From Prevotella sp. (lineage in GTDB: Bacteria > Bacteroidota > Bacteroidia > Bacteroidales > Bacteroidaceae): a stretch of DNA of 50,666 nucleotides. The translations under genes were made by a program, and so were the position numbers. The stretch covers positions 1 through 50,666 of the forward strand of contig JAFYJN010000077.1 in NCBI GenBank assembly GCA_017538105.1, in the 5' to 3' direction. Within the stretch, counting starts at the first letter, position 1, and every line of letters begins with the position of its first letter. Below are positions 28,361 to 48,525 of this stretch, piece by piece. Under the pieces are notes generated by a model. It did no database searches, had not been told where the DNA came from, and saw nothing but the letters and a program-made list of their open reading frames with translations.

Positions 28361-28409
28361 CAAAGATAGACTTTTGAAAATAAGTAAGCCCTCAAATGTA
28401 TACCTATAA
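28361..28409 (-). promoter_or_regulatory. Operator plus -7 box of AAA paralogue 1
   Basis: On the minus strand the near-palindrome TTATAGGTATAC (28409-28398) is followed after 29 bases by TATCTTTG (28368-28361) and after about 20 more by the ATG. No -33 TTTG at the normal distance, suggesting activator dependence. Confidence 0.6.
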
Positions 28410-28455
28410 ATTTAGAATACTGCCTTTTGAGTCACTTTAAGGTTCAAGAAAACTG

Positions 28456-28504
28456 TTATACCTATTAATATATCCCCATAAACACTGGTCTTCTCGTATA
28501 TTTG
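28456..28504 (+). promoter_or_regulatory. Operator plus -7 box of the SprT-like gene
   Basis: TTATACCTATTA (28456-28467), 29 bases, TATATTTG (28497-28504). Same arrangement as the divergent promoter and as three other loci at 37.4, 40.8 and 48.5 kb. Confidence 0.6.
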
Positions 28505-28539
28505 CAAATACAACCGATTACAACAAAATACTCTAAATA

Positions 28540-28965
28540 ATGATAGCAGATTATAATACAATGCTCATGATGTTTTGGGAGTGTAATAAGAAGTATTTCG
28601 AGCGCTCGTTGCCCACACCGAAGTTTGGATTGTTCAAGAAACTGAACCTTCTGGCAGAATTTGTGTATTACAAGAACAAAAATGGTAGAAAACCAATAAA
28701 GGATCAGCGCATTCTATTTTCGGAGTACTACGATTTTGATGAAGAGACGTTTCGTAATCTGATGGTTCATGAGATGATACATTATTATATCGCGTGGAAC
28801 GGAATAGAATGCAAACACGACCATGGTAAGGAATTCATGCAGATGGCCCATGAATTGAACGAGAAATATGGTCTGAACGTAACCAAGACAGTGGACGCCT
28901 CGTCGTTCAAAAGAACTGAGCATGCGCCCACCGTCAAAGGTTTCTGGCAGTGGTTGTTGTGGTGA
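28540..28965 (+). CDS. SprT-like zinc metalloprotease
   Basis: 141 residues. VHEMIHYY carries the HExxH zinc site and the downstream HDHGKEF supplies a third ligand; the whole resembles the SprT/Spartan-like fold. No signal peptide, so it is intracellular. SprT-type proteins act on DNA-bound or damaged proteins (family knowledge). It is divergent from the AAA paralogue 1 gene and both promoters carry the same operator, so the two are probably coordinated; Cdc48-type ATPase plus SprT-like protease is a known functional pairing in eukaryotes, which is suggestive only. Confidence 0.8.
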   Translation: MIADYNTMLMMFWECNKKYFERSLPTPKFGLFKKLNLLAEFVYYKNKNGRKPIKDQRILFSEYYDFDEETFRNLMVHEMIHYYIAWNGIECKHDHGKEFMQMAHELNEKYGLNVTKTVDASSFKRTEHAPTVKGFWQWLLW

Positions 28966-29017
28966 TGGAGAGGGGAGTGCCACTGCCAATAGTCATGGAT
29001 CGTTTCCTATAAGATTC

Positions 29018-32000
29018 TTATTTTACTTCAACAACGAACTGAGTGACGGGGTAGTAGATAAGTTTTGCCAGAACAATCTCACCAGCTTTTTCAAGAGCAG
29101 TTTGGTAACAGTCAAGTTGCCCTTTGTAATTTCCTACATAGTGCTTATTTTCCTTTGATAATGTGTCAGAGCGTTTCCAGTCTGGGTATGATTTATAGTC
29201 TATGACCACATTACCCTTCGCTGTCTGCCATACCAAATCAATAGAGCCGGTTACGATTTGACCATTGTCTGCATACTTGAATGGACGCTCATGATAGACG
29301 GCAACAGCCTCGCCATATTTTTCCTGAAGGAACAGGAGTAGTCGGTTCCAAGAATCAGCAATTGCCTGTGGATTCGTGAGTTGGGCTTGCATGCCATGAG
29401 CAAGAATAACAGAAGAGATATAGTCAGCGGAATTGTTCTTGTCGAGCGTACAGAAGATATGGTGGATGCAGGTACCGACTTTTGCCATTGTTTCCTCATC
29501 AGGAGCATTCTCAATAGGAATCCGCTGTTCTTTCTCATCCAGAAGAACTTCAATGTTTTCAGCAACCTGTTTCACTTTGCTTGGCATCACATCGCGAGCA
29601 ATCCTTTCTTCCAGAGAGTCTTGACGAAGCAGTAACACCTTGTCGAAGTGTCCTAAGGAAGGATACATCAACGTTTCCGGATTATCTACAATAGAAACCA
29701 CTTCAGTATCAAACTTCTGCAAGAGGGAATCTGCACTGACATCTACCGTTGCGAACCACTTCATGGGGTCAGCAATCTTCTTGGTTTTCATGCTCACTAA
29801 CACAAGACATTCGCTGGCTCGCGTCATTGCTACATAGAGCTTCCTCTTGGCTTCGCTTTTTTGCGCCTTTCTCTTATTCTCAGAATCTATAGGACCTATT
29901 TCGGCAGGAACTTTTTGAGCTGCACCAAATAGCCAAGGGAGTACCGTGATGGTCATCGGAACAAAAAGGTGATTGGCAGAGGGCTCCTTGTCATGATTCT
30001 CTTGCACACCAAAGACATTGTTCTTGTCAAATTTGTAATTGTAATCAGTTTCCAATGATGTCACGATAACGTGTTTCCATTCCAATCCTTTTGAGCTATG
30101 AATGGTATATAGACATACGCCATCGTTGTCGCCCTCAGTCTTTACTTCTGTGGTATCAACATATTCCATATAGCCGGATATAGTAGCAGGCAGTCCAAGC
30201 TGCAAGCAGTGGTCTTCATACGTCCTGGCTAACTCATTACATGTCCGCAGAATGTTATAGCCACGAGGCGTGGTGTCCCAATGACGGCTTTCTGCATATA
30301 GATCCATTTCTATGATGACACTCTCAACTAAAGCTGACACAGACTGGCGCTTAAATGACTCTGCGTGTTCAAACAGTCTGGTTATGAGAGGATGACTCTT
30401 CAGAAAATCCTTATCAATAAGTTTGTTGTCAATCAGACCGCCCAACGAGGTATCAGGATCTGTGAGGTAATGAATCTGCATCATAGCCATGGAGTTGTTC
30501 TTGCTCACCAACAAGGCAAGTAAGGCAAAAAGCAACTGTTTCTCCTTTTCTTCAGAAACAGAGCCGTCACTCCGTCTTACAGGAAGGTTGTAGGCCCTTA
30601 GTTTTTTAGCTAAGGTGTCCAAGTCATTGTTTTTATTATTCAGAACTGCTATATCTGAGGGTTTGATGCCTTGTTGTACCATTACTGCGATTCTGCGGGC
30701 AATCTCAGAATAAGCCATCTCTTTCGTGTCTTCATTCAGATTCCACAGCTTTAGAGGGGTGACAACTTTTTCTTCAGGCTTGATGTCCTTTGGTTTTAAT
30801 TCAACCATTTCTTTTTCCAGTCCGTCTTCTTTAAAGACAGGGACAAAGACATCATTCACCATAGAAGTGATGACAGGATGAGAACGCCAACATGTGTCGA
30901 GAGGTTTTGCCAAGCGGTTCCCATCCTGGCCTTTCGCAATGACATCAACGACAGCTTTCACAAGGGCAGTGTCTGTGCCACGGAATCCAAAGATGGCCTG
31001 TTTGTAATCACCCACCCAATAGCTTTTCTTCATAAGTTTCGATAACTCGTCGAATATCTGCACTTGAATAGGAGAACTGTCCTGGAACTCATCTACAAAG
31101 AGGTATTCATAACTGCTACGGATATCCTCTTTGACATCGTCACGCTGAAGCAGTTTGAGCATATATCGCTCCATATCATCATAGTCAAGCAGATGATTCT
31201 GAGATTTGTACAGTTCGTATCTCTCTTTCCATCTTTCAGCCATGTCGAAGATGGTGTTGACAAGACGCTCGTTCATCTGCTTGACTTGAAGAGTTGCCCA
31301 TGGATTGAGTGCCTCATTATATGCTATTCCTTTGGGACTGTTCTTTGCAACAGAGGCTTTCCCAATTGCTGCAGAAACAGCTTTCTTTAGACCGAGAATC
31401 CATTGGAACGAAATAATATGAGGCTTTTCCTTATATTTAAGAATGTCTGTGGTTAATTGTTCCTTAGTATCATCGTTTAATCTGCCTGCGTTGGCAATAG
31501 ATATGATTAACTCGTTGAGTGCCTCGATTCTCTGTTCATCAGAAGGAAGGGGCATGTCCCCCTTATAAAGTGAGCGAACCTGATTGAGTGATGCTTCACG
31601 ACTAGCTTGGAGGTTAGTAATGCCGAAGGTTTCAGACTTCTTGATGACCTTCTGAAGCAAGTCCTTCCAATAGCCATAATCAGCAAAGCTGCCTTTGCTG
31701 GGATCACCAGGAACGCGTAGCTTCTCTATACTGAATTCATGACGGAAGTTGTTCAGAAACTTAATCTCGTCTGAGGTGGGCAGCTCAGCCAATGACTGGC
31801 TGATATAGAAATCGATGTCTTCCTCGGCAATGACTTTTTGTTGTGGACTCAGTCCTAAGTAATACCAATACTTTTGGACGAACGAATTAGCTACTGAGTG
31901 AACGGTACCTATACATGCCTGGTCTAAACGACCTGCTGCCTCATGAAGAAAAGCATCATTACGCCCTTCTTCATAGAGAACGCTTTTCGCTTTCTCGCGA

Positions 32001-32185
32001 AACTCTGCGGCAGCCTTTTTGGTATAAGTCGTTAGTATTACCTTTTCTGGCTCTACCTGCTCGCAGGATTCCCACTTCCCATCCTTATTTTTTTTCTTAC
32101 CGGCAATATGCTCAGCCAAGAGGTGAGTCAAAGTGTAAGTCTTGCCACTACCGGCACCTGCGCTAATATATGTTACTCTTTCCAT
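29018..32185 (-). CDS. AddA/UvrD-like helicase-nuclease
   Basis: 1055 residues. UvrD-type SF1 motifs are all present: YISAGAGSGKTYTLTHL (Walker A), TYTKKAAAEFREKA (Ia), LFVDEFQDSSP (II), YWVGDYKQAIFGFRGTD (III), CLYTIHSSKGLEWKHVIV (V) and LYVAMTRASECLVLVS (VI). A C-terminal PD-(D/E)xK nuclease follows (GSIDLVWQTAKGNVVIDYKSYP). This is the AddA/RecB layout that unwinds and trims duplex DNA. It starts 9 bases after the AddB-like gene. As it sits in an accessory region with ADP-ribose genes, an anti-phage or repair role is possible. Confidence 0.88.
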   Translation of the reverse strand: MERVTYISAGAGSGKTYTLTHLLAEHIAGKKKNKDGKWESCEQVEPEKVILTTYTKKAAAEFREKAKSVLYEEGRNDAFLHEAAGRLDQACIGTVHSVANSFVQKYWYYLGLSPQQKVIAEEDIDFYISQSLAELPTSDEIKFLNNFRHEFSIEKLRVPGDPSKGSFADYGYWKDLLQKVIKKSETFGITNLQASREASLNQVRSLYKGDMPLPSDEQRIEALNELIISIANAGRLNDDTKEQLTTDILKYKEKPHIISFQWILGLKKAVSAAIGKASVAKNSPKGIAYNEALNPWATLQVKQMNERLVNTIFDMAERWKERYELYKSQNHLLDYDDMERYMLKLLQRDDVKEDIRSSYEYLFVDEFQDSSPIQVQIFDELSKLMKKSYWVGDYKQAIFGFRGTDTALVKAVVDVIAKGQDGNRLAKPLDTCWRSHPVITSMVNDVFVPVFKEDGLEKEMVELKPKDIKPEEKVVTPLKLWNLNEDTKEMAYSEIARRIAVMVQQGIKPSDIAVLNNKNNDLDTLAKKLRAYNLPVRRSDGSVSEEKEKQLLFALLALLVSKNNSMAMMQIHYLTDPDTSLGGLIDNKLIDKDFLKSHPLITRLFEHAESFKRQSVSALVESVIIEMDLYAESRHWDTTPRGYNILRTCNELARTYEDHCLQLGLPATISGYMEYVDTTEVKTEGDNDGVCLYTIHSSKGLEWKHVIVTSLETDYNYKFDKNNVFGVQENHDKEPSANHLFVPMTITVLPWLFGAAQKVPAEIGPIDSENKRKAQKSEAKRKLYVAMTRASECLVLVSMKTKKIADPMKWFATVDVSADSLLQKFDTEVVSIVDNPETLMYPSLGHFDKVLLLRQDSLEERIARDVMPSKVKQVAENIEVLLDEKEQRIPIENAPDEETMAKVGTCIHHIFCTLDKNNSADYISSVILAHGMQAQLTNPQAIADSWNRLLLFLQEKYGEAVAVYHERPFKYADNGQIVTGSIDLVWQTAKGNVVIDYKSYPDWKRSDTLSKENKHYVGNYKGQLDCYQTALEKAGEIVLAKLIYYPVTQFVVEVK

Positions 32186-32194
32186 ATGTCTCTC

Positions 32195-34930
32195 TTATTT
32201 CCTAAAGTTGTTATAATCGCTGAAGATATTCTCCTCTTTGATGCCATCTCTTGATCTGAGTGGCATCAGCTTCTTGTCAGAACTATCTGAAACATAGCGA
32301 AGCTCGCTGGTGTCCTTGCCTTCTCCAAGTTCGATATTGCCCTCTGATAGCTGCTGACAGCGGTATTTGTGAGAGTTTTTAATTTGTGTGAAAAGTTTTT
32401 TGCCCACGTTCTCTGTTTCTTCCAACTGTATGGCATCTGAACCTTGGAATGCGTGCGTGCTGTACAGGCGATTCTCTGGCATGAGGAAATAGGCTGTAGC
32501 AGCAACAGGCTTGCTTAGTTCCTTTTTGGCCAGCTCTTTATAAAGAGCTAACTGGAGTGACCCATTCTTGGCAATCAAGTCCTTGTAATGATTCTTGGAA
32601 CTGGTCCATTTGAAGTCAAACACATAGAGTTTACCTTGTCTGTCAGTGAGAAGCATGTCAATATAGCCTTTGATATCGGGATTATACTCCAAACCAAGTT
32701 TGCGTATTATTTTCTTTTCACATTCTACAACACATAAATCATTGTCTCTAACAATACCTAGCAAAGTGTCAATGGCGTAGCGTAGGCGGTCTTTCAGTAT
32801 TTTGGTGTCCACTCTGTTCTCGCGAAGCAACAAGATGGCTCCTTCTTCCAAGAGGGCATTGCTGAATGATTTATCGAAAGATGATTCAATTCGTTTGGAA
32901 ATCTGGTCGGCAGTATTCTCTTCGCCTTCCTTGTAGAAAAGCTGTGCAATCGTGTTATGGGCGACAAGGCCTTTCGTTATGTCCAACTGCTTCATGGCTG
33001 AGATGCTGTTGTCTTTGATTCCTACAAGGTATTTCATCGTATAATCAAACGGATGCTGAATCAGCAGATCCAAAGACGTGGCACTTTCTTTGTCGCGCCA
33101 TTTCAGGTGGTCAGCATTCTTAATCTTCAGGAACTGTTCATCATTTGGTTGGTTGTTAACTAATGGGCAATCAACGAAATGCTTCTCCTCAGGTTGTGGT
33201 TCAATGACGACATCACAAAGATTATTGAAGTGCTGCTCCAATAGAATCATCAATGGGTGCTTTTGTAGTACCTCACTACCATCTCGTTCAGGAAACACCA
33301 ATGTTAACTGATGCTTGGTCAGGAGAAATGGAATCTGTTGCAGGAATGCATGATATCGCCGCTCGTCATCAGCTGCCCATATATGAACACCTTCAGCAGC
33401 CAATGCCTCTTTCTCCTTCTGTGACAGGAAAGCATAAGAAGATGGAGCATTTGTGTGATCATAGAAATCACACCAAATGGTTTTGTCTGATTCTCCAGCC
33501 ATGTTGGCAGGGGTGGCTATTACATTTCGACAGTCTTTTTCCGCTTCGTACATAGGATAGTCCTGAGGTTCATATGAACTGTTGATCCATCCTTGCAGAA
33601 CAGTGACAGGTATATCCTCTTTAGTTTCTGTTGAAAGTAACAGCGTCAGTGCTTCTGCTTGTTCTACGATGACCTGCAGCTGTAGCTGTTCTGTTTGATT
33701 GATATTCTTGTGGAGACGATTCTTAACCCATTTGGAAAGATGGTCCACAAAGGTCAAAACATCGTTCTTCTTGACATGCTCATCCATTTTCAGCACATCT
33801 GCAGGGCGCTCCATAGGAGGCAAGAATTTCTTAATCAGCTTTGTGCGATTAGGCTTGTTTCTCTGAATGGTTTCCTTCTTTTCCTCTTCTGTGATATCCG
33901 AAGGCCAGGAGTCATACTTACCGTTTCTGTAATTGTCGATAACCTCTTGACACTTCTTGTTATAATATCCGCCTGAGTCAACAATCATGTCAGCTAAAGG
34001 TTCACGAAGTTTTTTATCTAGGGGATTTACTGGAGAGCGCAACCATTCAAGCAAGAAATAGATGTTCAATGGGCGTGGAATGAGATTAAGACCAATTATC
34101 AGCAATTGGGATATTTGAGGAATAACATCCTTCATATGGGAACCGCATGTAGGTTGGCCAGACAAACGAAGCGTGTTGTCGAAAGCCTTGTTATCTGAGT
34201 CAATCCAGACATCATAGTTGGATGGATTCTGCAGGGTAAGGTTGTTGACGGCATCTTGACGTTGCTTAAACTTGAAGATCTGGAATGACTTGTCGCTTGT
34301 TTTCAGTTCAGTTGGAACATCTTTTTTACCTTGTACCAAATTACGTACCATTGAGAGATTTGATCCATCGATTTCTTCAAAGTTCATTTGGTAGATATTC
34401 ACTTCCCGTTGACGCAATATCTCAAATAAGGCCCGTAAAGATGGGTGCAGGCAATCTTCAGGGATTGCCATCTCTATCTCTAACTGAGGAGGAAGAACAC
34501 ATCCATTTTTTACAGATTCAATGATATCATGTATTCTTTCACCATTTCCTGGGCAGTCGAAAAGATTCTCTATTCCACATAGAACCTCCATGCGACCAGT
34601 AACTGAAGCTTCTTGACCAGTCCATCCTGCTTCGATTAATAAATCCCGCCAATGAAGACAGGTTTTTGCAGTTCCAAGTCCATCAAGACGGAATGAGTCT
34701 GCCAATAAGTGATTGGGGTGTTCTTTTGTATATTCTAAAAGCGCAGAATAGTAGAGTGCAGTCCTTTTATTTGAATTAATTAACTCGATATGCTTCCCAG
34801 CATACAATTCCAAGAGATCGAGTAATCCAGAGGTGCTGCATATTTGTATATCAAGTGCCACTCCATTGGGAGAAGCATTTAAATTGTAATAGGTAAAGCC
34901 TTGATAGGCTGGTGAATAAATAATCTTCAT
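32195..34930 (-). CDS. AddB-like PD-(D/E)xK nuclease protein
   Basis: 911 residues from ATG 34930 (MKIIYSPAYQGF); in-frame codons up to 35014 are unlikely because a TATCTTTG box lies at 34966-34959. The N-terminal part is a degenerate helicase-like region with no Walker A. The C-terminus carries a PD-(D/E)xK nuclease: DIKGYIDMLLTDRQGKLYVFDFKWTSS (Asp, then DFK), followed by QLALYKELAKK. It pairs with the AddA-like product as a two-subunit helicase-nuclease. It does not look like the usual housekeeping AddB of Bacteroidales, which supports an accessory origin; this is judged from memory. Confidence 0.75.
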   Translation of the reverse strand: MKIIYSPAYQGFTYYNLNASPNGVALDIQICSTSGLLDLLELYAGKHIELINSNKRTALYYSALLEYTKEHPNHLLADSFRLDGLGTAKTCLHWRDLLIEAGWTGQEASVTGRMEVLCGIENLFDCPGNGERIHDIIESVKNGCVLPPQLEIEMAIPEDCLHPSLRALFEILRQREVNIYQMNFEEIDGSNLSMVRNLVQGKKDVPTELKTSDKSFQIFKFKQRQDAVNNLTLQNPSNYDVWIDSDNKAFDNTLRLSGQPTCGSHMKDVIPQISQLLIIGLNLIPRPLNIYFLLEWLRSPVNPLDKKLREPLADMIVDSGGYYNKKCQEVIDNYRNGKYDSWPSDITEEEKKETIQRNKPNRTKLIKKFLPPMERPADVLKMDEHVKKNDVLTFVDHLSKWVKNRLHKNINQTEQLQLQVIVEQAEALTLLLSTETKEDIPVTVLQGWINSSYEPQDYPMYEAEKDCRNVIATPANMAGESDKTIWCDFYDHTNAPSSYAFLSQKEKEALAAEGVHIWAADDERRYHAFLQQIPFLLTKHQLTLVFPERDGSEVLQKHPLMILLEQHFNNLCDVVIEPQPEEKHFVDCPLVNNQPNDEQFLKIKNADHLKWRDKESATSLDLLIQHPFDYTMKYLVGIKDNSISAMKQLDITKGLVAHNTIAQLFYKEGEENTADQISKRIESSFDKSFSNALLEEGAILLLRENRVDTKILKDRLRYAIDTLLGIVRDNDLCVVECEKKIIRKLGLEYNPDIKGYIDMLLTDRQGKLYVFDFKWTSSKNHYKDLIAKNGSLQLALYKELAKKELSKPVAATAYFLMPENRLYSTHAFQGSDAIQLEETENVGKKLFTQIKNSHKYRCQQLSEGNIELGEGKDTSELRYVSDSSDKKLMPLRSRDGIKEENIFSDYNNFRK

Positions 34931-34989
34931 AGACTTGGTATTTTTAGTTATCTGATTGCAAAGATACAGAATTGTTTGAGAATAACAAA

Positions 34990-37344
34990 TTATTGGGAGG
35001 TATATTGATTCCACCGGTCGAGGATTTCGCGGAGTTCCTGGGGAAGTTTGTTGTAGCTGCCGACGGTGATGTCTTCGGGCACGGGCATGGTGGCAGCGGC
35101 GATGTTGCCGGCTATGCAGGCCATCGTGTCGGTATCACCACCGAGGGAGATGGCGCGGATAACAGCATCCATGTAGCCTTCGGCTTCGAGGAAACAGATG
35201 ATGGATTCGGGGACGCTCTTGTCGCAGGCGGTCTCGAAGGTATAGATGGGGCGAATCTCATTGGTAGTGCGGTTCAGGTCGTAACCGAAGGTTTGTTCGA
35301 TGTACGACTTGATATCGGCTTTTGGCTTACCTGTGCGGTTCAGGAAGATGGCGGCAGCAACAGCCTGGGCACCACGGATGCCTTCTTCGGAGTTGTGAGT
35401 GATTTCGGCAGTAGTCTTGGCGAGCGCCAGACATTCTTCGAGCGATTTTGCATACCAGGCAACAGGAGCCACACGCATGGCGCTGCCATTGGAGTTGGCG
35501 CCATAGGGAGCACGATCGTCTGACTCAACCCATTTGCGGAAGTTTCTGCCAAAGGTGAAAACACGATAGCGGTTGGCGAAATGCTTGAACAGGTCGATGA
35601 GCGTCTCTTTGTTGTGCGAAGGATCGTCCATCAGCCACTTGGCAATGGCGAGCGAGAGGATGGTGTCGTCGGTATACGACATGCCGGCCAGCACTTTCAT
35701 GCTCTTCTTGCTGGCGAGTCTTTTGGCCTTGTCTTTGTCTTTTTCCAGCTCATACATAGAACCGAGTACTTCGCCACAGATGCCACCGATGAGGCCGGTC
35801 TGTGGGAGGTTTTCAGGGGCAGTACGCTCGACACGCTCCACGCTGATGTGTCCATCGGTTTCCTGATGGAAACGAAGCACACCACCCAGCCAGTTGATGT
35901 AGGCGCTATTAAGCAGGTCGACATCAGCAGGTTCTCCATGCAGCCACTTCTGCCACTCGGCATACCAAAGGTTGCTTCCTTTCCTGAGTTCTTTAGAACG
36001 GGTTGGAGGAGTGCCATAACGAGTTATCATGAAGTCGCTCTTGATGAGTTGAGGGTTATTGAGGTAACCATTCTCGGGGTTGACAATCTTGGCTTGATAT
36101 TGTGCAGCTTTTCGACTGTCATCGAATTTGGCCATGAGTTCGGCTGATTCAATACTATCGAAATGAACACCAAGGATGTCAATACCGCTACTGGTGGCAT
36201 TAGGGGTGAGACTGTCTGTAGATGCAGGTTGTGGCGCAGACAGGGAGAGAGGTCCGTAGAGTTCGAAGTCGGGCTTGAAGTAAACACCGTCGCGGAATAC
36301 GCGTTTGTCAAAACCGCCAAGGTTGTTGGGATCGTTGGGATTGGAACCACGATGTTGTTCGCCAAAGACGCAGGTGAACACGCACATCTTGTAGAGCAGG
36401 TCGATGGAGCCCAGGGGTGATGTGAAGTCGGTGCGTATGAGGACGATGGGCAGATGGCCTGGCAGATGTTTCATGAAGTTGCGGCAGATGGCTTCTTCAC
36501 GTGGGGTGACAAGCAATACCAGGGCGCAGTCGGTCTGAGAGTGTTTCCGGCTTTGGATGAAGTTGGAGAGCGCAAGGAAACGTCCATGGCACTCGTCGCG
36601 GAAATCGGAGATGACGCATGAGGCCAATCCGGCTTCGGTCATGTTACTCTCCATCTTGTGGGCTACAGGTTCGCCATACGAACCATAGAGCACGGTGAAT
36701 TGGGAGATCTGACTGAGGTCGGGTGGGGCAATGGTTTCATCTACGCAGCAATACGTGAAGTTGTCTTCGGGCTTGGCAGAGAGAGCCAGTTTGCGTGAGA
36801 AGTCGTTGTCGCCAGTGAAGGCCTTGTATAACAAGGAGAAGTACGCGAAGGTGCCATTCACGCTAATAAATCCGTCGGGGAACTCAAATTCACGGTTGAT
36901 GACCCCATTGGGACAGGCCCTCTTCATGCGTTTCATGTTGGGATTGTCACTATGAGTCATCGTCAGGGCACAGCTGTGTTCAGGGTTCACGCGAGCCATA
37001 CGACCAGCGATATACACGGCATCTTGGTTCTTCAGCGATTTGCTGATGAGCAGGAGTTTTGAGTTGCGTAGCGTCTCGTCAGAGAGCGAGTTGCACTGAT
37101 AGGGTGTCACCACTTTGCTCAGTCCGCAGTTCGTGCCGTAGAGCAGTGCTGCATACGAGGCGGAAGAATGCGAACCACCATGTCCCATCGTGATGAGGGG
37201 GCGTTCGGGTTCGTTGAAGAGAAACTGGCGCAGAGGCTCCACGTCGGTCTGTTCAGCTTGTTCGATGTACTTGCGTGTGTCTTTTAGTAAATCGCTCATT
37301 AGTGGTTTTCCACCACGAGCATAAGGTTTTCTGCTATTTGACAT
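34990..37344 (-). CDS. SIS domain fused to an ADP-ribosylglycohydrolase
   Basis: 784 residues from ATG 37344; codons up to 37368 lie too close to the -7 box (37373-37366). The N-terminal about 370 residues resemble a SIS sugar-isomerase fold (ITMGHGGSHSSASYAALL, KLLLISKSLKNQDAV). The C-terminal about 270 residues are an ADP-ribosylglycohydrolase: GLIGGICGEVLGSMYE, the metal motif MSYTDDTIL, GSAMRVAP, and GGDTDTMACIAG. Such enzymes remove ADP-ribose from protein or DNA. It shares a divergent promoter region and the island operator with the gene at 37465. The pairing of SIS with this hydrolase is unusual to me. Confidence 0.82.
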   Translation of the reverse strand: MSNSRKPYARGGKPLMSDLLKDTRKYIEQAEQTDVEPLRQFLFNEPERPLITMGHGGSHSSASYAALLYGTNCGLSKVVTPYQCNSLSDETLRNSKLLLISKSLKNQDAVYIAGRMARVNPEHSCALTMTHSDNPNMKRMKRACPNGVINREFEFPDGFISVNGTFAYFSLLYKAFTGDNDFSRKLALSAKPEDNFTYCCVDETIAPPDLSQISQFTVLYGSYGEPVAHKMESNMTEAGLASCVISDFRDECHGRFLALSNFIQSRKHSQTDCALVLLVTPREEAICRNFMKHLPGHLPIVLIRTDFTSPLGSIDLLYKMCVFTCVFGEQHRGSNPNDPNNLGGFDKRVFRDGVYFKPDFELYGPLSLSAPQPASTDSLTPNATSSGIDILGVHFDSIESAELMAKFDDSRKAAQYQAKIVNPENGYLNNPQLIKSDFMITRYGTPPTRSKELRKGSNLWYAEWQKWLHGEPADVDLLNSAYINWLGGVLRFHQETDGHISVERVERTAPENLPQTGLIGGICGEVLGSMYELEKDKDKAKRLASKKSMKVLAGMSYTDDTILSLAIAKWLMDDPSHNKETLIDLFKHFANRYRVFTFGRNFRKWVESDDRAPYGANSNGSAMRVAPVAWYAKSLEECLALAKTTAEITHNSEEGIRGAQAVAAAIFLNRTGKPKADIKSYIEQTFGYDLNRTTNEIRPIYTFETACDKSVPESIICFLEAEGYMDAVIRAISLGGDTDTMACIAGNIAAATMPVPEDITVGSYNKLPQELREILDRWNQYTSQ

Positions 37345-39397: not shown

Positions 39398-39400
39398 AAA

Positions 39401-40796: not shown

Positions 40797-40845
40797 TTAT
40801 AGGTATAACTTCGGGGGTTGCCCTCAACTAAAAACCATATATTTG
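40797..40845 (+). promoter_or_regulatory. Operator plus -7 box of the esterase operon
   Basis: TTATAGGTATAA (40797-40808), 29 bases, TATATTTG (40838-40845), then ATG 40861. Same geometry as at 28.4, 37.4 and 48.5 kb. Confidence 0.65.
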
Positions 40846-40860: not shown

Positions 40861-41730
40861 ATGCAACGAATTATTATGAAAACGATTATCTATTTTCACG
40901 GCTTTGGATCAAGCGGGCAGAGTAACACGGTGAAACACCTCAGGAAGAAGCTTCCCCAATACACCGTACTTGCTCCTGATATTCCCGTGAATCCTTCAGA
41001 GGCTCTTCCCTTCCTGAAGAAGTATTGTGAAGAAAAAAATCCCGATTTGATTATCGGAACCAGCATGGGGGGGATGTACGCCATGCAGATGCATAACTAT
41101 ACGCGCATCTGTGTAAACCCTGCGCTAAGGATGTCGGAACTGCCAGATATTCTCAAGCCTGGTACTTTTAAGTATTTCACACCTCCCCAGAATGGTGAGA
41201 CGCATTTCACGATAACGGAAGAAACCATACAACAGTTCCGTGAGATGGAAGCTCACATGTATGACGATTATAATCAAATGAATCGACATTTTTGTTGGGG
41301 ATTCTTTGGCGATAATGATACCACGGTGAACTGCCGCGAGGAGTTTGAAAAGCACTTTGCACCCAATATTACGACATTTCAGGGCGGACATCGCATGAAC
41401 AATCGTACGCTAGACGAGGTTGTCCTGCCATTTGTGGAGAACCTGTTTGAATGCAGTATGAGTAAGTATAAAAAAGGAGATTGGGTTAAATTCGTTTCCG
41501 ATCAGCCCAGTGCATATCTTAGCAGGTATGCTTATGGTGATCTGAAAATAGAAAGGAAAGAACATATTGGTGTGATTAAGGATGTGCAATGTGTTTTCAT
41601 GAAGTGGTACTTATATGGAATAGAAACCTTCACGGTAAAGTGGTTTTGTTTAGTTGATGAAGGCGACATTATTGAGAAATTATCTGATGAGCAGATTCAA
41701 GAAGTAAAAAAGAAATATCCAATAAGATGA
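40861..41730 (+). CDS. YqiA-like alpha/beta-hydrolase with added C-terminal module
   Basis: 289 residues (ATG 40861, or 40876 for MKTIIYFHGFG). Residues 1-200 are a YqiA/UPF0227-type serine esterase: IIYFHGFGSSGQS (oxyanion loop), LIIGTSMGGMYAM (nucleophile Ser), FFGDNDTTV (acid) and FQGGHRMN (catalytic His). At residue 200 a Met starts a second stretch (MSKYKKGDWVKFVSDQPSAY...VKWFCLVDEGDIIEKLS), a small beta-rich domain that looks like a separate gene fused by loss of a stop. The partner genes 41727 and 42683 overlap by ATGA. An esterase domain of the same family is fused to PfkB at 44641. Confidence 0.8.
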   Translation: MQRIIMKTIIYFHGFGSSGQSNTVKHLRKKLPQYTVLAPDIPVNPSEALPFLKKYCEEKNPDLIIGTSMGGMYAMQMHNYTRICVNPALRMSELPDILKPGTFKYFTPPQNGETHFTITEETIQQFREMEAHMYDDYNQMNRHFCWGFFGDNDTTVNCREEFEKHFAPNITTFQGGHRMNNRTLDEVVLPFVENLFECSMSKYKKGDWVKFVSDQPSAYLSRYAYGDLKIERKEHIGVIKDVQCVFMKWYLYGIETFTVKWFCLVDEGDIIEKLSDEQIQEVKKKYPIR

Positions 41731-42686
41731 CAAAAGCCGAGCTATATACCGATGAGTGGGGTGTGACCTATACAAACGGAGGTCGCACTCTGCAGGAGGT
41801 CAACCCCCAGTTGTTCACCTGCGAGGAATATACGGTTCCTGAGGGAGTGGAGGAGGTGATGGATGATGCCTTTTTGATGAAAAATCCAAGACTGCGAAAG
41901 ATTCATTTACCCAGCACTTTGCGAAAACTGGGGTATAATACATTTCTTTGTTACCCTTTGGTGGAACTTGAATTGCCAGAAGGTGTCAATGAGGTTCCTG
42001 ATAGTATGTGCGAGTGTTGCAAAGAGTTGAAGAAAGTGGTATTGCCATCGACCACCAGTAGAGTTAGAATAGGGGCATTCAACGGTTGTCGGAAACTTCA
42101 GGAAATCAATCTGCCTGATAATATCGAGTTCTTCGAAGATTGTGCTTTCCAAGGTTGTGAATCTTTGAAGCAGATTGTATTGCCGCCGAAACTTAGGTTT
42201 ATTAGTCCTGAATTGTTTTGTTGCAGCGGCATAGAATCCATAGAGATCCACGAATCGATTACCGAGATTGGCTATTGGGCATTCTGGGGTTGTCGCCATC
42301 TGAAGCGGCTGGTCATTCCTGAGAGTGTGACGAGCATTGAGTTTGGCATTGTCAGCTCACACGAAGGCTTTGAGGGCATTGAATGCCATGCAAAGGGCTA
42401 TCATGTGGAGAACGATGCGCTGATTGACGATGAGAAGCAGGAACTGCTATGCTGCTGGACACGGCAGAAACACTATGTGGTGCCCGAGTGTGTCAGGCGC
42501 ATTGCCGACATGGGGGGAAACGACGTGGTGGAGACCATCACCGTGAGGCAACCTATTGAGGTGTCTTACGATACTTTCGCCTCCGACATCAATCTCAAGC
42601 GAGTTGATTTCCAAGGCGGTGTGTCGGGGGTATTTGAATCAACCTTCTGGAATTGTCCGAAACTGATGCAAAACAAGATTATATGA
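41727..42686 (+). CDS. BspA-type leucine-rich repeat protein, cytoplasmic
   Basis: 319 residues made of LRR_5/BspA repeats (LRKIHLPSTLRKLGYNTFLCY, LKKVVLPSTTSRVRIGAFNGC, LQEINLPDNIEFFEDCAFQGC, LKQIVLPPKLRFISPELFCC, LKRLVIPESVTSIEFG). BspA proteins are often exported adhesins; here there is no signal peptide, so an intracellular ligand-binding or adaptor role is more likely. ATG overlaps the preceding stop (ATGA), and the following gene also starts with a stop overlap, so the three are translationally coupled. Possibly the target-recognition part of this operon (inference). Confidence 0.85.
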   Translation: MTKAELYTDEWGVTYTNGGRTLQEVNPQLFTCEEYTVPEGVEEVMDDAFLMKNPRLRKIHLPSTLRKLGYNTFLCYPLVELELPEGVNEVPDSMCECCKELKKVVLPSTTSRVRIGAFNGCRKLQEINLPDNIEFFEDCAFQGCESLKQIVLPPKLRFISPELFCCSGIESIEIHESITEIGYWAFWGCRHLKRLVIPESVTSIEFGIVSSHEGFEGIECHAKGYHVENDALIDDEKQELLCCWTRQKHYVVPECVRRIADMGGNDVVETITVRQPIEVSYDTFASDINLKRVDFQGGVSGVFESTFWNCPKLMQNKII

Positions 42687-43138
42687 ACAGTAGGAATCCT
42701 AATGCAAGAACAAAAATGGGTGGCAGTGAAAACTTGACAATGAAAGCATTGTCACTTGCAATACATGACAATTTCCCCAACTTGAATCTTGAGTTCGTAG
42801 AGCATAACGAGAAAACTAATCAATCATATCCTGTTGATTTGCGATTTACTGATATAAAGTATATCGACAACGAACGAGTGGTGTTACATGGGCAATTAAC
42901 CATGTCATTGAGACCATTTGGCACAGGTGCTATTGAATACAATTTTAATACGCAAGATTTCTTCAGAGTGTCATATTCAGACAAGACTACACGCAGTAGG
43001 AAATTGCATACATTAATCCCCCATAATGAAAAAGTCATCAACAATTTGCTGACATTCATTTCTAACTATCTTTATTCAAGAGAGGATTACGAAACAAATA
43101 TTAATGTGAATGGTTCAACACCATCCAAACCACATTAA
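42683..43138 (+). CDS. Hypothetical 151-residue protein
   Basis: ATG 42683 overlaps the previous stop (ATGA); an in-frame TTG at 42653 is unlikely. The body is beta-rich and resembles a ligand-binding sandwich: LTMKALSLAIHDNFPNLNLEFVEHNEK, YPVDLRFTDIKYIDNERVVLHGQLTMSLRPFGTGAIEYNF, then a charged C-terminus. No known family is recognised. It is the third gene of the operon with the esterase and LRR protein, just before the right arm of inverted repeat 2. Confidence 0.55.
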   Translation: MNSRNPNARTKMGGSENLTMKALSLAIHDNFPNLNLEFVEHNEKTNQSYPVDLRFTDIKYIDNERVVLHGQLTMSLRPFGTGAIEYNFNTQDFFRVSYSDKTTRSRKLHTLIPHNEKVINNLLTFISNYLYSREDYETNINVNGSTPSKPH

Positions 43139-44532: not shown

Positions 44533-44615
44533 CAAAGATATGAATTATTTGTCAATCTCACAAAGAATTTATTCGTATAATTTCCGAAAAGTTTGGCACA
44601 ATTTTTGTATCTTTG
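44533..44615. promoter_or_regulatory. Divergent promoter with shared operator
   Basis: TTATTCGTATAA (44569-44580) lies 28 bases from TATCTTTG on the minus strand (44540-44533) and 27 bases from TATCTTTG on the plus strand (44608-44615). Flanking TTTAT-N-CGTATAATTTC matches the 37401 operator. Confidence 0.6.
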
Positions 44616-44640: not shown

Positions 44641-46302
44641 ATGAGAAACATGAAAAATGACATTTTGACATTGATTGGCTCTCTGAGAGAGAAGACGGCA
44701 GGGAAGACCTGCATGGGAACTGGCAACTACTGTTTAGACGTCATCATCAAACGGGAGTATCCAAACGGCTTTGTGGTGGGCAGGCGCAACAAGTTTGAGG
44801 AGAAGATCTTGAAGATGGAGATTGGCAACACCTGTGGCAACGTGATGACGATGCTGCCCTATCTGGGCGTGAAGACCTTCCCTGTGGCCAAGTTGGACAT
44901 GTCGCCTCAAGGTTATCTGATGAAACGCGACATGAAGGCTTATGGGGCTGACGTTAGGTTTGTGAGTAACACTCTGAAAGGTGGTACCACAATTCTGCGC
45001 TGTACCCATAAGTTGGATAAGGATGGCAAACCTACAATGGGTCACAAGGGATCGGCTGCTGGCAGGCCTTGGACGGGACCCTCGGCAAATCAAAACAAGA
45101 AGTACCTCAACTCGCAGAATGGTGAGGTTGAGACTCTACTGAACACCATGGACTTCACTCCCGATGTATTCTTCTTTGACGTGGCACAGGCCGGGCATAG
45201 GAGCCTGGCAGAACGGTTGCGTGAAAAGGGCACACTGGTGTACTTTGAGTGTGATTCGGACGGACATAAGATTGAGGATGAAAAAAGAAGACTGTCCACC
45301 TATAGGGCTTTCCTCAAATGTGTGGAGGCCAGTGATGTGATTAAGATGTCGGGAGAGCATATTCAGGACTTGACGTTTGCTGACGCTTATCAGGATAAAC
45401 TCTTCATCCAGACGCTTGGCGCAGAGGGACTTCGGTTTAAGTTGGGTGGAGGACAGTGGATCAAGCTCGACCCCATTGTGAATCCTGACTATAAGGACTA
45501 CGAGGGTGCTGGCGACTGGACTTCATCAACGCTGATTGCCGCCCTCTGCAGCAGGAATATGCTGAAGGTGGAGGATATGACGGAGAAGGATGTGAAAGAG
45601 GTGCTGACCACCGCACAGACGATGGCCTCATATAGTGTGGGTTTCTATGGCAGTAAGGGTTTGATTCATGCGGATGAGAACTTCAAGAAGCAGGACGACA
45701 CGTTGGAGATGCCTCACTACACGCAGAAACTGATGTATCTGCATGGCTCTGCATCGGCAGGATATAGCCACACATCGATGGGTATACTGAAGTGCTTGCC
45801 TGAGGATTGGCAGTTGCTGACGCCAGATTGTCCGGTGGATGCTGAAGAGTGTCTGCAGATGCTGAAGGAGCTGTGTGAGCGGGAGAAGCCTGACTTGATT
45901 GTAGGTAGCAGTCAGGGTGGATACTATGCCCAGATGTTGAGAGGATACAAGCGCATATGTGTGAATCCCGCCCTCGACATGTCGAACGATGCGGATGTGA
46001 AGGTGGGTAGGCACGAGTTTTTGATAAACCGACAGGATGGTGTGCAGAAGTATGAGATCACACCCGAGATGCAGGAGGGTTATCGCAGGTTGGAGGCCCA
46101 CCAGTTTGAGGGCATCACCGACTTTGACCGCGAGAACTGCTATGGGCTCTTCGGCGACCACGACGAGGACTATGGGCATTGCAAACCCATCTTCGCGGAG
46201 CACTACAAGCACATCTACACCTTCCCTGGAGGGCACAGGATGGAGGATGAGGAGATTGAGGCGCACCTGATGCCGCTGATTAGGAAATTGATTGAAAATT
46301 GA
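44641..46302 (+). CDS. PfkB-family kinase fused to a YqiA-like esterase
   Basis: 553 residues from ATG 44641; earlier in-frame codons overlap the -7 box (44608-44615). Residues about 1-340 are a ribokinase/PfkB fold (TCMGTGNYCLDVI, TCGNVMTMLPYLGVKTFPVAKLD, FFFDVAQAGHRSL) ending in the catalytic GAGDWTSSTLIAAL. Residues about 350-553 are a YqiA-like esterase: MYLHGSASAGYSHTS, LIVGSSQGGYYAQM (Ser), FGDHDEDY (acid), FPGGHRME (His). The esterase is a paralogue of the protein at 40861. A ribose or ribonucleoside kinase would fit recycling of freed ribose in an ADP-ribose pathway (inference). The next gene starts 1 base later. Confidence 0.88.
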   Translation: MRNMKNDILTLIGSLREKTAGKTCMGTGNYCLDVIIKREYPNGFVVGRRNKFEEKILKMEIGNTCGNVMTMLPYLGVKTFPVAKLDMSPQGYLMKRDMKAYGADVRFVSNTLKGGTTILRCTHKLDKDGKPTMGHKGSAAGRPWTGPSANQNKKYLNSQNGEVETLLNTMDFTPDVFFFDVAQAGHRSLAERLREKGTLVYFECDSDGHKIEDEKRRLSTYRAFLKCVEASDVIKMSGEHIQDLTFADAYQDKLFIQTLGAEGLRFKLGGGQWIKLDPIVNPDYKDYEGAGDWTSSTLIAALCSRNMLKVEDMTEKDVKEVLTTAQTMASYSVGFYGSKGLIHADENFKKQDDTLEMPHYTQKLMYLHGSASAGYSHTSMGILKCLPEDWQLLTPDCPVDAEECLQMLKELCEREKPDLIVGSSQGGYYAQMLRGYKRICVNPALDMSNDADVKVGRHEFLINRQDGVQKYEITPEMQEGYRRLEAHQFEGITDFDRENCYGLFGDHDEDYGHCKPIFAEHYKHIYTFPGGHRMEDEEIEAHLMPLIRKLIEN

Positions 46303-46303
46303 G

Positions 46304-46996
46304 ATGATGATAGAAGTGATAAAAAGCCCTCAGCCCGTTGTTGAGAAGAAACAATGGATGGTGTTTCTGGCTGGACCGATGAATGGCGCTCCCTCGTGGC
46401 AGGCGCAAGTTCCCAAGGTGGCAAAAAAGATTGGACTTGACAATGTCACGTTTCTGAATCCCAGAAAGACCGACCGCTTTGTAAGTCATTCTGCCCAGCT
46501 TAATTGGGAGACCTTCGGTCTTCGTATTGCCGACGTTATCCTTTTCTGGATACCCCCTCAGACTCGTGAGATGAAACCCCATCGTGTATATGCCATTACC
46601 ACTCGAATGGAGTTTGCCGAGAATTGCGCCCGAGGCCATAAGATCATCTTCGGACTAGACCCTGAGGTGGAGGATTTGACGGGTATCAGCCATCTGAAAC
46701 ATCTTGCCAAGTATTATGGTATCAAGAAGGTGCACTCTACGCTTGAGGACTGTCTGAAGGAATTGAAACAATGGCTCGAGAGTAGGGAATATGAACCTAA
46801 GGAGCTTCATGTACCTGGTCCCGCTTTCGATGCGATGGATAGCTTGAAGCGTAGTTATCCCCTGAAGAACCGAAACCAAACCCTCATGGAACACTGGAAC
46901 CAAACGGTAGGTCTTCATGACAAGGTGTATGTGGAGGGTGATTTCGGTGCAGAGGAGTGGAAAGACTATCTGAACGGGGAGATAATCCAGAAATAG
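46304..46996 (+). CDS. Nucleoside 2-deoxyribosyltransferase-like protein
   Basis: 230 residues from ATG 46304, 1 base after the kinase-esterase stop. MVFLAGPMNGAPSWQAQVPKVAKKIG, VTFLNPRKTD, LNWETFGLRIADVILFWIPPQT and ITTRMEFAENCARGHKIIFGL follow the nucleoside 2-deoxyribosyltransferase pattern (glycosidic-bond chemistry on nucleosides, a fold shared with nucleoside hydrolases/CMP hydrolases). A C-terminal extension after about residue 150 has no known match. It is co-transcribed with the PfkB-esterase gene; together they suggest processing of nucleosides made when ADP-ribose is removed (inference). Confidence 0.75.
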   Translation: MMIEVIKSPQPVVEKKQWMVFLAGPMNGAPSWQAQVPKVAKKIGLDNVTFLNPRKTDRFVSHSAQLNWETFGLRIADVILFWIPPQTREMKPHRVYAITTRMEFAENCARGHKIIFGLDPEVEDLTGISHLKHLAKYYGIKKVHSTLEDCLKELKQWLESREYEPKELHVPGPAFDAMDSLKRSYPLKNRNQTLMEHWNQTVGLHDKVYVEGDFGAEEWKDYLNGEIIQK

Positions 46997-47008
46997 GATT
47001 CCAACGGG

Positions 47009-47881
47009 TTAACTGACATGCCGCAAGAGTAACGTTGATTGGTTGCTCTTGCGGATTTTTTCGATTCCCCTTTCACGGATTTGGCGGACTCTTTCGCGGC
47101 TGAGTCCCAATTCGTTGCCAATCTCTTCGAGTCCACGCTCGGGGCATCCGATGCCGAAACTTTGGAGTACGACCGTGCGTTCGCGTTCGTTGAGCACAGA
47201 AGTCAACACCACTTTCAAGTCGCTGCACATGGACTCATAATCAACCTTGCGGTCGGCTGCATATTCTGCTGGCGAGGCAAGCGTTTCGGCGAATGTCGTG
47301 TCTTCGTCTTCGCTGATGGGGGCGTCGATGCTGGAGAAATGGGCATCGGCTCGCATGGCCATCTCAATCTTGCTGATCTCCATGGAGATGATTTCGCTTA
47401 GTTCTTCTACTGAAGGATAATGCTGATTTATCTGAAGGAACTCGTTGGTCGCATTCTTGATTTTGTTGCTGATGGCTATCTGGCTCTGAGGCCTACGCAC
47501 CATTTTGCTATAGTCGGCTATGGCTTGAAGAATGCTTTGGCGAATCCACCAAATGGCATAGGAGATGAACTTGAACCCACGAGTCTCGTCAAACTTGTCG
47601 GCCGCCGTAATGAGCCCTATGTTGCCCTCGTTGATTAGGTCGATGAGAGGTACACCGTGGTTCTGGTATTGTTTGGCTACAGACACGACGAATCGCAAAT
47701 TGGCTGACACCAACTTGTTTTTGGATTCTTCGCCCTTCCTGCCTCCCGAATGGATGTCTTGGGCAAGGGCGACTTCCTCTTCCAACGTCACCATAGGGAT
47801 GCGGTTGATCTCTGTAAGGTATTTCTTGAGTGATCCCTCTGAACGATTCGTGATGCTTTGAATGATTTTAAGTTGTTTCAT
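47009..47881 (-). CDS. RpoD-like sigma factor paralogue
   Basis: 290 residues from ATG 47881. The start MKQLKIIQSITNRSEGSLKKYLTEINRIPMVTLEEEVALAQDI and region 2 (LVSANLRFVVSVAKQYQNHGVPLIDLINEGNIGLITAADKFDETRGFKFISYAIWWIRQSILQAIADYSKMVR) match Bacteroidales RpoD, but regions 3 and 4 diverge (SQIAISNKIKNATNEFL..., LEEIGNELGLSRERVRQIRERGIEKIRKSNQ is retained). It is therefore a second, RpoD-like sigma, likely directing an accessory set. The 3' end overlaps a plus-strand hairpin that can terminate the 46304 gene. No clear promoter box was found upstream. Confidence 0.9.
   Translation of the reverse strand: MKQLKIIQSITNRSEGSLKKYLTEINRIPMVTLEEEVALAQDIHSGGRKGEESKNKLVSANLRFVVSVAKQYQNHGVPLIDLINEGNIGLITAADKFDETRGFKFISYAIWWIRQSILQAIADYSKMVRRPQSQIAISNKIKNATNEFLQINQHYPSVEELSEIISMEISKIEMAMRADAHFSSIDAPISEDEDTTFAETLASPAEYAADRKVDYESMCSDLKVVLTSVLNERERTVVLQSFGIGCPERGLEEIGNELGLSRERVRQIRERGIEKIRKSNQSTLLLRHVS
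47021..47060 (+). terminator. Terminator for the 44.6-47.0 kb operon inside the sigma gene end
   Basis: The arms 47021-47033 and 47042-47054 form a 13-bp stem (one wobble pair) followed by ATTTTTT on the plus strand. It lies within the last codons of the opposing sigma gene. Confidence 0.7.
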
Positions 47882-47983
47882 ATTGTGTGTGTTTCTAATT
47901 ATATGTACTTTGATGGTTTGAAAAATAATACCCCCCATATATATAGGAAAAAAATCGCGAAAATTTAAGGATGGTTGAAAAAA

Positions 47984-48418
47984 TCAACTTGCAAGCTTCT
48001 TTCGCAGGTCTCTGATTCTCGATTCAAACCCCTTGCAATGGACGGTGTGGATTTTCAAATAACAACAATCGTAATGATGCATGAACTCATGGAGGAGGGT
48101 GTTTATAAAGGTCTTTATCTCGCAGGGGATTCTGTAATGCTTGTTGTTCCAAAGGGTGATATCCTTGCTCTTGCCTTCATAAAGCCCCATTTTCGTAAAC
48201 CCGAATATGGGATCGTACGTCATGTCGTACACCCAAATCTTACAATGTGGTATTTCGTATTTGTCGCAAAGATAGTCAATCAGTCGTTGCGAGGCTTCTC
48301 TTCTTGCTTCCACTTTGCTTCCGCAATGGAGCAAGGCCTGGTATTCTTCGTGTGAGAATTCGGTGTGATCCACGGTTGGGAATTTGTTGCTTTTCTTGAT
48401 GTTTCTGATACTTGCCAT
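47984..48418 (-). CDS. SprT-like zinc metalloprotease 2
   Basis: 145 residues from ATG 48418 (MASIRNIKKSN); in-frame upstream codons run across the promoter and are excluded. LLHEFMHHYD carries the HExxH zinc motif, and HTVHCKGFESRIRDL after it may give the third ligand and downstream helix, as in SprT-like proteins. There is no signal peptide. It is divergent from AAA paralogue 2 with one shared operator, mirroring the 28.4 kb locus. Its stop is 102 bases from the RpoD-like sigma start, on the same strand. Confidence 0.75.
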   Translation of the reverse strand: MASIRNIKKSNKFPTVDHTEFSHEEYQALLHCGSKVEARREASQRLIDYLCDKYEIPHCKIWVYDMTYDPIFGFTKMGLYEGKSKDITLWNNKHYRIPCEIKTFINTLLHEFMHHYDCCYLKIHTVHCKGFESRIRDLRKKLAS

Positions 48419-48440
48419 AATAATAATTGTTTGTTTAGTG

Positions 48441-48525
48441 CAAAGATTGTTTTTATTATCGTAAAAAATCTTCTTTTTATACCTATAATTAATCGGCATT
48501 CTCAAAAACAGGACACATATATTTG
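48441..48525. promoter_or_regulatory. Divergent promoter with shared operator (AAA 2/metalloprotease 2)
   Basis: TTATACCTATAA (48477-48488) lies 28 bases from AATCTTTG on the minus strand (48448-48441) and 29 bases from TATATTTG on the plus strand (48518-48525). This plus -7 box excludes in-frame starts before about 48530 for the AAA gene. Confidence 0.65.

What the first reader, a model, noticed from the sequence alone, without database searches (positions are those of the whole stretch)
28361..48525. A shared near-palindrome at fixed distance in front of nine promoters
TTATA(C/G)(C/G)TATAA or a close variant lies 27-29 bases upstream of a TAnnTTTG-type -7 box for nine genes at five places: 28398 (minus), 28456 (plus), 37401 (both), 40797 (plus), 44569 (both) and 48477 (both). 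At three loci one palindrome sits symmetrically between divergent promoters. Most of these lack a normal -33 box, consistent with an activator binding there, near position -47. Controls in the same window (2436, 11909, 12593) have ordinary -33 boxes and no motif. This defines a regulon from sequence alone: AAA+ ATPases, metalloproteases, ADP-ribosylglycohydrolase, ADP-ribosyltransferase, PfkB-esterase and esterase-LRR operons.
Basis: seen in the sequence. Interest (0 to 1): 0.9.

Follow-up and report, generated by a model that had tools for sequence, protein, structure and literature searches.

The report
Phased palindrome marks a hidden regulon
Nine gene starts in this Prevotella-type bacterium share one short palindrome at a fixed distance from the promoter, and the same arrangement recurs in related bacteria in front of similar stress- and defence-like genes, which points to one still unidentified switch protein that controls them together.

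Summary
TTATASSTATAA (at most 1 mismatch) lies 27-29 bases upstream of a TAnnTTTG box at 8 promoters and of AATCTTTG at the ninth; 200 Markov sequences gave none. In the own genome, with gaps of 15-45 allowed, 11 of 13 motif-box pairs fall at 27-29: these nine plus two outside the window, one before a paralogue of the window's esterase-LRR operon. In relatives 21 of 39 pairs with core CG, CC or GG fall at 28-29, against 1 of 15 at 27-29 for core GC. Among 71 distinct Bacteroidales sites 11 precede an IetA-like AAA gene; others precede SprT, UPF0227, ADP-ribose enzymes, SbcD, AddA. With the box at -12 to -5 the palindrome centres near -46.5. Best explanation: operator of a dimeric activator that stands in for a weak -33 element. 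Corrections: one of the nine has a perfect -33 TTTG and two have ATTG; the -33 deficit over all sites is slight; 'control' 2436 carries a near-motif at the wrong distance (39). The regulator is unknown; WYL proteins are the leading, unproven candidates.

The parts
28398..28409 (-). palindrome TTATAGGTATAC (1 mismatch), 29 bases upstream of box 28361-28368 (TATCTTTG), for the AAA gene
26602..28341 (-). IetA-like AAA ATPase; the ATG at 28341 is likelier than the listed TTG at 28395, which lies upstream of the box
   Evidence: Pfam AAA 1.5e-24; PADLOC IetA 8.1e-32
28456..28467 (+). palindrome TTATACCTATTA (1 mismatch), 29 bases upstream of box 28497-28504 (TATATTTG)
28540..28965 (+). SprT-like metalloprotease
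   Evidence: Pfam 9.2e-11
37401..37412 (.). palindrome TTATACGTATAA shared by divergent boxes 37442-37449 (+, spacing 29) and 37366-37373 (-, spacing 27)
34990..37344 (-). protein with C-terminal ADP-ribosylglycohydrolase domain, first gene of the minus operon; the ATG at 37344 is likelier than the listed TTG
   Evidence: Pfam ADP_ribosyl_GH 1.2e-30
29018..35014 (-). UvrD/PDDEXK (29018-32185) and PDDEXK (32195-35014) proteins, AddAB-like by arrangement, downstream in the same presumed operon
   Evidence: in the relative G273 a site stands directly before an AddA-like gene
37465..40396 (+). presumed plus operon: unknown, unknown, DUF4919, ADP-ribosylglycohydrolase (39485-40396)
40797..40808 (+). 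palindrome TTATAGGTATAA, 29 bases upstream of box 40838-40845 (TATATTTG)
40861..43138 (+). UPF0227 esterase, LRR_5 protein and unknown; a paralogous operon on contig C41 has the site at spacing 28
44569..44580 (.). palindrome TTATTCGTATAA (1 mismatch) shared by boxes 44608-44615 (+, spacing 27) and 44533-44540 (-, spacing 28)
   Evidence: palindrome position and boxes kept against diverged spacers in L130 and L141
43279..44502 (-). ADP-ribosyltransferase-like DUF3990 protein (43897-44502; weak) and NADAR protein (43279-43881)
   Evidence: DUF3990 5e-5 and ART-PolyVal 1.5e-4, both below Pfam's cut-off; NADAR 1.2e-8, above it; NCBIfam NADAR anti-phage 5e-22, below its cut-off
44641..46996 (+). 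PfkB-UPF0227 fusion and Nuc_deoxyri_tr2 protein
   Evidence: UPF0227 2.8e-9; PfkB 1.4e-5, just below cut-off; Nuc_deoxyri_tr2 4.5e-11
48477..48488 (.). palindrome TTATACCTATAA shared by box 48518-48525 (+, TATATTTG, spacing 29) and 48441-48448 (-, AATCTTTG, spacing 28)
   Evidence: conserved in three related AAA promoters
47984..48418 (-). HExxH metalloprotease-like protein
   Evidence: sequence LLHEFMHH; weak NCBIfam 6.2e-4, below cut-off
47009..47938 (-). primary-type sigma-70 paralogue, perhaps co-transcribed with the metalloprotease
   Evidence: Pfam regions 1.2, 2, 3 and 4; paralogues on C39 and C3
48580..50316 (+). second IetA-like AAA ATPase

Best explanation
TTATA(CG, CC or GG)TATAA is the operator of one dimeric DNA-binding protein that sits at about -52 to -41, just upstream of where region 4 of the housekeeping sigma factor contacts -33, and activates promoters that have a good -7 box but often a poor -33. 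Because the site is symmetrical, one bound dimer can serve two divergent promoters. The regulon is accessory: present in some rumen-type Prevotella and relatives, absent from others. Its targets are IetA-like AAA ATPases, SprT-type and other metalloproteases, ADP-ribose enzymes (ART-like, NADAR, ADP-ribosylglycohydrolase, microbial PARG), nucleotide and DNA-end enzymes (SbcD, AddA, LigT, NT5C) and UPF0227 esterases. I read it as a damage- or phage-stress regulon. Shown: the phased motif, its recurrence, its conservation in related promoters, the gene families. Inferred: activation, dimer, the stress trigger. Unknown: the protein; a WYL-domain activator is the best single guess (about 0.3).
For: Own genome 11 of 13 pairs at 27-29. 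Non-own pairs at gaps 15-45: cores CG/CC/GG 21 of 39 at 28-29, core GC 1 of 15 at 27-29. In 28 chosen genomes, those with an exact phased site hold further pairs with one mismatch, 9 of 16 at 27-29; those without gave 1 of 14, the chance level. Unselected bases after the box are C 90% and A 80% (71 sites). Related promoters keep palindrome and box while the spacer changes. Gene families recur: of 71 sites 11 precede AAA, 3 HD-PARG, 3 SprT, 3 UPF0227, 3 PfkB-UPF0227. For WYL: cluster above 35% identity in 13 of 14 motif genomes and 5 of 14 others (64 of 72 WYL matches clustered); relatives of one own WYL protein in 7 of 7 motif genomes and 37 of 73 others of the genus; a WYL gene leads gene strings with AAA in G028 (also sigma) and G059.
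Against: No transcription-start, binding or expression data. 18 of 71 sites are unassigned and 6 more precede families known only as unknowns, and single cases are named by their own gene. The -33 deficit is slight and uncorrected. WYL: 2 of 20 named motif genomes have no match, no WYL gene carries the phased motif, half of the motif-negative genomes of the genus have WYL too, p values are uncorrected and may reflect genomes rich in accessory islands. Known WYL sites are longer than 12 bp (DriD 20 bp, BrxR 11-bp repeats with 5-bp spacer; passages). MetK and IS1595 targets fit a stress regulon poorly. Not all sites are independent: some G144 and G162 spacers are alike.
Confidence: 0.68

Rival explanations
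1. The palindrome is a repressor operator: a dimer at -46.5 blocks RNA polymerase or loops, and is released under stress.
For: Compact palindromes are typical of repressors (general knowledge); some promoters keep a -33-like element (44580 minus TTTG, both 37401 promoters ATTG); the -33 deficit over all sites is slight.
Against: Repressor sites are seldom held to within a base of a fixed distance upstream of -35 (general knowledge); here 15 of 39 related pairs are at exactly 28 and 6 at 29.
Confidence: 0.17
2. The palindrome is part of the promoter recognised by an alternative sigma factor, for example the sigma-70 paralogue 47009-47938.
For: Sigma genes of this cluster lie in 9 of 54 context loci, window included (two, L124 and L147, of the short type), once directly behind a site (L151); six of nine window promoters lack -33.
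Against: A full-length paralogue above 60% identity was found in 2 of 28 genomes (own, G162), plus an 80-residue fragment at 71% in G001, while 14 of the 28 have the motif; sigma region 4 does not read a 12-bp palindrome at -46 (general knowledge); the box is the ordinary sigma-A box.
Confidence: 0.06
3. The AAA protein is itself the regulator, through winged-helix-like N-terminal domains, and autoregulates.
For: AAA is the commonest direct target (11 of 71); the model shows helix-helix-hairpin elements at 92-136 and 245-284, my reading of the secondary structure only; AAA matches in 10 of 14 motif genomes against 3 of 14 others, a comparison biased by the choice of genomes.
Against: 4 of 14 motif genomes have no AAA match (G001, G018, G050, G377; 79-91% complete), among them G018 with four pairs at 28. 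Of 29 non-own AAA loci, six could not be judged (match starts inside the gene) and of the other 23 only L049 has the motif.
Confidence: 0.05
4. Coincidence, or shared descent of duplicated promoter DNA without function.
For: Some promoters in G144 and G162 share long spacer sequence, so not all sites are independent.
Against: Bases between motif and box show little conservation over 71 sites; related promoters keep motif and box but not spacer; phasing statistics.
Confidence: 0.03

Closest known systems
DriD (WYL activator, Caulobacter) regulon, PMC12340889 (passages read)
   Same: Activator with a site at fixed distance from -10 in promoters with poor -35; acts on a bidirectional promoter region; targets include a nuclease.
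   Different: Consensus ATACGAC-N7-GTCGTAT over 20 bp, overlapping -35; here a compact 12-bp palindrome upstream of -33. No WYL gene is tied to the motif.
Bacteroidetes LexA / SOS regulons, PMC8565304 (abstract and passages read)
   Same: Palindromic operators that define a multi-operon damage regulon in the phylum.
   Different: Motifs GGA-N5-TCC and CTAA-N5-TTAG, S24-family repressors, umuD/dinB-type targets; no such target is among the families named.
BrxR (WYL regulator of defence islands), PMC9122601 (passages read)
   Same: Regulates defence-type islands from inverted repeats.
   Different: Repressor, 11-bp repeats with 5-bp spacer, within its island; here many unlinked operons.
Sigma-ABfr promoters of Bacteroidota (PMC7366714, PMC9723704; passages read)
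   Same: TAnnTTTG box at -12 to -5.
   Different: A palindrome centred at -46.5 and no conserved -33 element.

Membership tests
Activator-dependent (class II-like) sigma-A promoter | standard -7 box | tested here: met
   8 of 9 exact TAnnTTTG, ninth AATCTTTG
Activator-dependent (class II-like) sigma-A promoter | operator at fixed distance next to the -35 region | tested here: met
   27-29 in 11 of 13 own pairs; 28-29 in 21 of 39 related pairs
Activator-dependent (class II-like) sigma-A promoter | weak or missing -33 element | tested here: inconclusive
   6 of 9 lack it; TTTG at spacer 18-21 in 3 of 71; TTG 10 of 71 against 22 of 72 controls in the most different of six stretches, p 0.026 uncorrected
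Activator-dependent (class II-like) sigma-A promoter | transcription rises when the protein binds | not testable with these tools
   needs a reporter
Bacteroidetes LexA/SOS regulon | operator GGA-N5-TCC or CTAA-N5-TTAG | tested here: not met
   the logo of 71 sites is TTATA(C/G)(G/C)TATAA with nearly flat flanks; LexA motifs from PMC8565304
WYL-activator regulon | WYL gene in every genome with the motif | tested here: inconclusive
   28 of 28 chosen genomes have some WYL match; the >35% cluster in 13 of 14 motif genomes; 18 of 20 named genomes reached through 23 of the 33 loci used
WYL-activator regulon | operator at the regulator's own gene | tested here: not met
   no phased motif (10 of 12 or better) in the WYL loci scanned, about 1.5 kb each side; the one phased hit, L327, is a G144 site fetched with them; L282, L292 and L309 hold unphased near-motifs
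DriD regulon proper | ATACGAC-N7-GTCGTAT | tested here: not met
   logo against the consensus in PMC12340889
Alternative sigma regulon of 47009-47938 | the sigma paralogue in all motif genomes | tested here: not met
   full length above 60% identity in 2 of 28, a fragment in G001

The most novel reading that the evidence does not exclude
One conserved activator, possibly a WYL protein that senses damage-derived nucleic acid or nucleotide, runs a genome-wide stress regulon in Prevotella and relatives that ties together ADP-ribosylation enzymes on DNA or nucleotides, SprT-type crosslink proteases, AddAB/SbcD nucleases and IetA-like anti-phage ATPases, so that accessory defence and repair islands, and even IS1595 transposases, are plugged into one switch by acquiring a 12-bp site at -46.5.
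Probability: 0.3. Interest if true: 0.8.

Novelty: new member of a known kind. Interest (0 to 1): 0.6.

Why it matters
One motif links unknown and accessory genes of Prevotella-type bacteria into one response, gives each a predicted start and a testable switch, and groups ADP-ribose enzymes with protein-crosslink and nuclease functions. If the regulator is found, the trigger of many defence-like islands in rumen Bacteroidales becomes testable. The site also suggests how unlinked islands could be co-ordinated without carrying their own regulator.

Tried and rejected
Core GC (TTATAGCTATAA) as part of the motif: spacing scattered, 1 of 15 at 27-29, rejected. Phage origin: viral contigs gave 3 hits at spacing 28/29 against 1 at 20/21 (one search repeated two of the three); two of the three have a short ORF behind the box (108 and 93 aa), which I did not search further. 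Sigma paralogue as regulator: rejected by distribution. AAA as universal regulator: 4 of 14 motif genomes gave no match. The 186-aa partner of the short sigma (25655-26215): model mean pLDDT 46, no use. WYL-type gene near a site: only L134 and L155 among the loci checked, and the L155 protein is a 137-aa HTH-only relative; not convincing. Motif at WYL genes: none phased. Near-motifs without a phased box also stand in L407, L408, L413 and L415; L413 (motif genome G059) has two 2-mismatch sites at exactly 28, one before an AAA gene, which I did not count. Literature (listings and starts of abstracts only): the string TTATACGTATAA in 2 unrelated papers; two searches returned nothing, searches listed nothing that describes this regulon; the library is open-access only. 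The PDB comparison of the AAA model tests mainly residues 227-571; its N-terminal part was not searched alone.

Limits: the 71-site set was chosen for spacing 27-29, exact TAnnTTTG, core not GC, so only bases outside motif and box are unselected, and the spacing statistics rest, not on it. The 39 related pairs include near-copies and one palindrome counted with two boxes. One search counts leave out own pairs, pairs already seen or 35 and a second box of one site. G096, G142 and G160 were taken as motif-negative because they have AAA genes, which biases the AAA comparison. Absences in incomplete genomes (G001 79%, G377 85%) are weak. WYL clustering used 64 of 72 matches. Three regulator ideas were tested, p values uncorrected. 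The own genome shows 5.5% contamination.
Full report
OBSERVATION. Spacings from palindrome end to box are 29, 29, 29/27, 29, 27/28 and 29/28. The palindrome by itself is not remarkable (13 against 5.86 expected at up to 2 mismatches; 7 exact sites in 3.6 Mb against 3 for the reversed pattern). The pairing is: 8 strict pairs at 27-29 in the window, none in 200 order-2 Markov sequences. The ninth box, 48477 minus, is AATCTTTG.

OWN GENOME. The window is a whole contig (C98) of a 3.61 Mb, 102-contig assembly. A search for the motif plus box with at most one mismatch overall and any gap of 15-45 gave 13 pairs: the nine, two more at 28 (C5:248444 minus and C41:40318 plus), one at 17 and one at 39. 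The C41 site stands before a UPF0227 esterase followed by LRR_5 proteins, a paralogue of the window's 40861 operon; the C5 site before a calcineurin-like phosphoesterase. So the motif predicted the right kind of gene outside the window.

RELATIVES. Exact search of 80 same-genus genomes and 349 family genomes, own included in both: after removing identical and own matches, pairs with core CG, CC or GG number 39, of which 15 are at 28, 6 at 29 and none at 27; pairs with core GC number 15 with 1 at 27-29. In one search all nine non-own pairs with a core other than GC lie at exactly 28. Allowing one mismatch in 28 chosen genomes, 14 genomes without an exact phased site gave 14 pairs of which 1 at 27-29; those with one gave 16 further pairs (own and already known pairs left out) of which 9 at 27-29. 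The regulon is therefore present in some genomes and absent, or nearly so, from others. Contig lengths shared (405,808; 41,035; 14,835 bases) identify G028, G001 and G049, of the window's genus, as genomes deposited as Prevotella sp.

ANATOMY. Seventy-one distinct sites (spacing 27/28/29: 6/48/17) give TTATA, then C 80% or G 17%, then G 62% or C 34%, then TATAA, with nearly flat flanks. Outside the selected letters the box is followed by C (90%) and A (80%). PMC9723704 (passages) places this box at -12 to -5 in a Flavobacterium, which puts the palindrome at -52 to -41, centre -46.5, for spacing 28. Between palindrome and box no conserved -33 element appears. Against 72 control promoters from the same and neighbouring loci I compared six patterns in six stretches; TTG 21 to 13 bases upstream of the box is 10 of 71 against 22 of 72 (p 0.026, uncorrected), but 27 to 19 bases upstream there is no deficit. 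In the window 44580 minus has TTTG at spacer 20 and both 37401 promoters ATTG at 20; six of nine have neither. The missing -33 is thus a tendency, not a rule.

FOOTPRINTS. The AAA promoter of 48477 aligned with three related promoters (two of them nearly identical to each other) keeps TTATACCTATAAT and TAnnTTTGC while the spacer differs. The PfkB-UPF0227 promoter of 44569 aligned with L130 and L141 keeps the palindrome position and the boxes on both sides, although the divergent partner gene differs: ART-like in the window, HD-PARG in L130 and L141 (PARG tested by Pfam in L130 only). One palindrome serving two promoters recurs at L042, L130, L135 and L141.

REGULATOR. Not found. WYL proteins: cluster above 35% identity in 13 of 14 motif genomes and 5 of 14 others (p 0.002); relatives of one own WYL protein in 7 of 7 motif genomes and 37 of 73 others of the genus (p 0.012); a WYL gene leads a string of genes with sigma and AAA in G028, a partial one leads a string with AAA in G059, and one lies divergent from AAA in G142, which lacks the phased motif. 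Against: 2 of 20 named motif genomes lack WYL, no WYL gene has the phased motif, and richness in accessory islands may explain the association. The sigma paralogue (full length above 60% in 2 of 28 genomes) and the AAA protein (no match in 4 of 14) are less likely.

VERDICT. The finding is real and extends beyond the window. It is a new regulon of a known kind. The activator reading is the best fit to fixed spacing just upstream of -33, but no experiment supports it yet.

Noticed in passing
window 24953-25642 and 25655-26215 (minus): A short sigma factor with Pfam region 2 only, preceded by a conserved 186-aa protein of unknown fold; the pair recurs in L124 (beside an AAA gene) and L147. Could be an unusual split or short sigma system.
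   Followed up: partly
window 47009-47938: A primary-type sigma-70 paralogue inside the regulon region; the own genome has three primary-like sigma genes.
   Followed up: partly
L046, L110, L186: IS1595-type transposase genes (Pfam tested in L186, the others by similarity) carry the same phased palindrome, as if the elements had tapped the host switch.
   Followed up: no
L107, L108 (G144, G162): Several sites share a long similar spacer (CAGATGTTGAAATCGCACGAAAAACGACGTA-type); L107 at 138 has no ORF behind it, perhaps a small RNA or a repeat.
   Followed up: no
L408 5037-12338; L409 1-4123: WYL-led strings of genes with REase-ARP or MBL-fold nucleases, sigma and, in L408, AAA genes; a related module without the phased motif.
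   Followed up: partly
window 12140-12440: Tandem ATACACTAA-type repeats in the long gap before 12747, with TTAGTGTATG-type inverted copies after them.
   Followed up: no
window 40460-40545: AT-only stretch of TATA-type sequence in the gap before the 40797 site.
   Followed up: no
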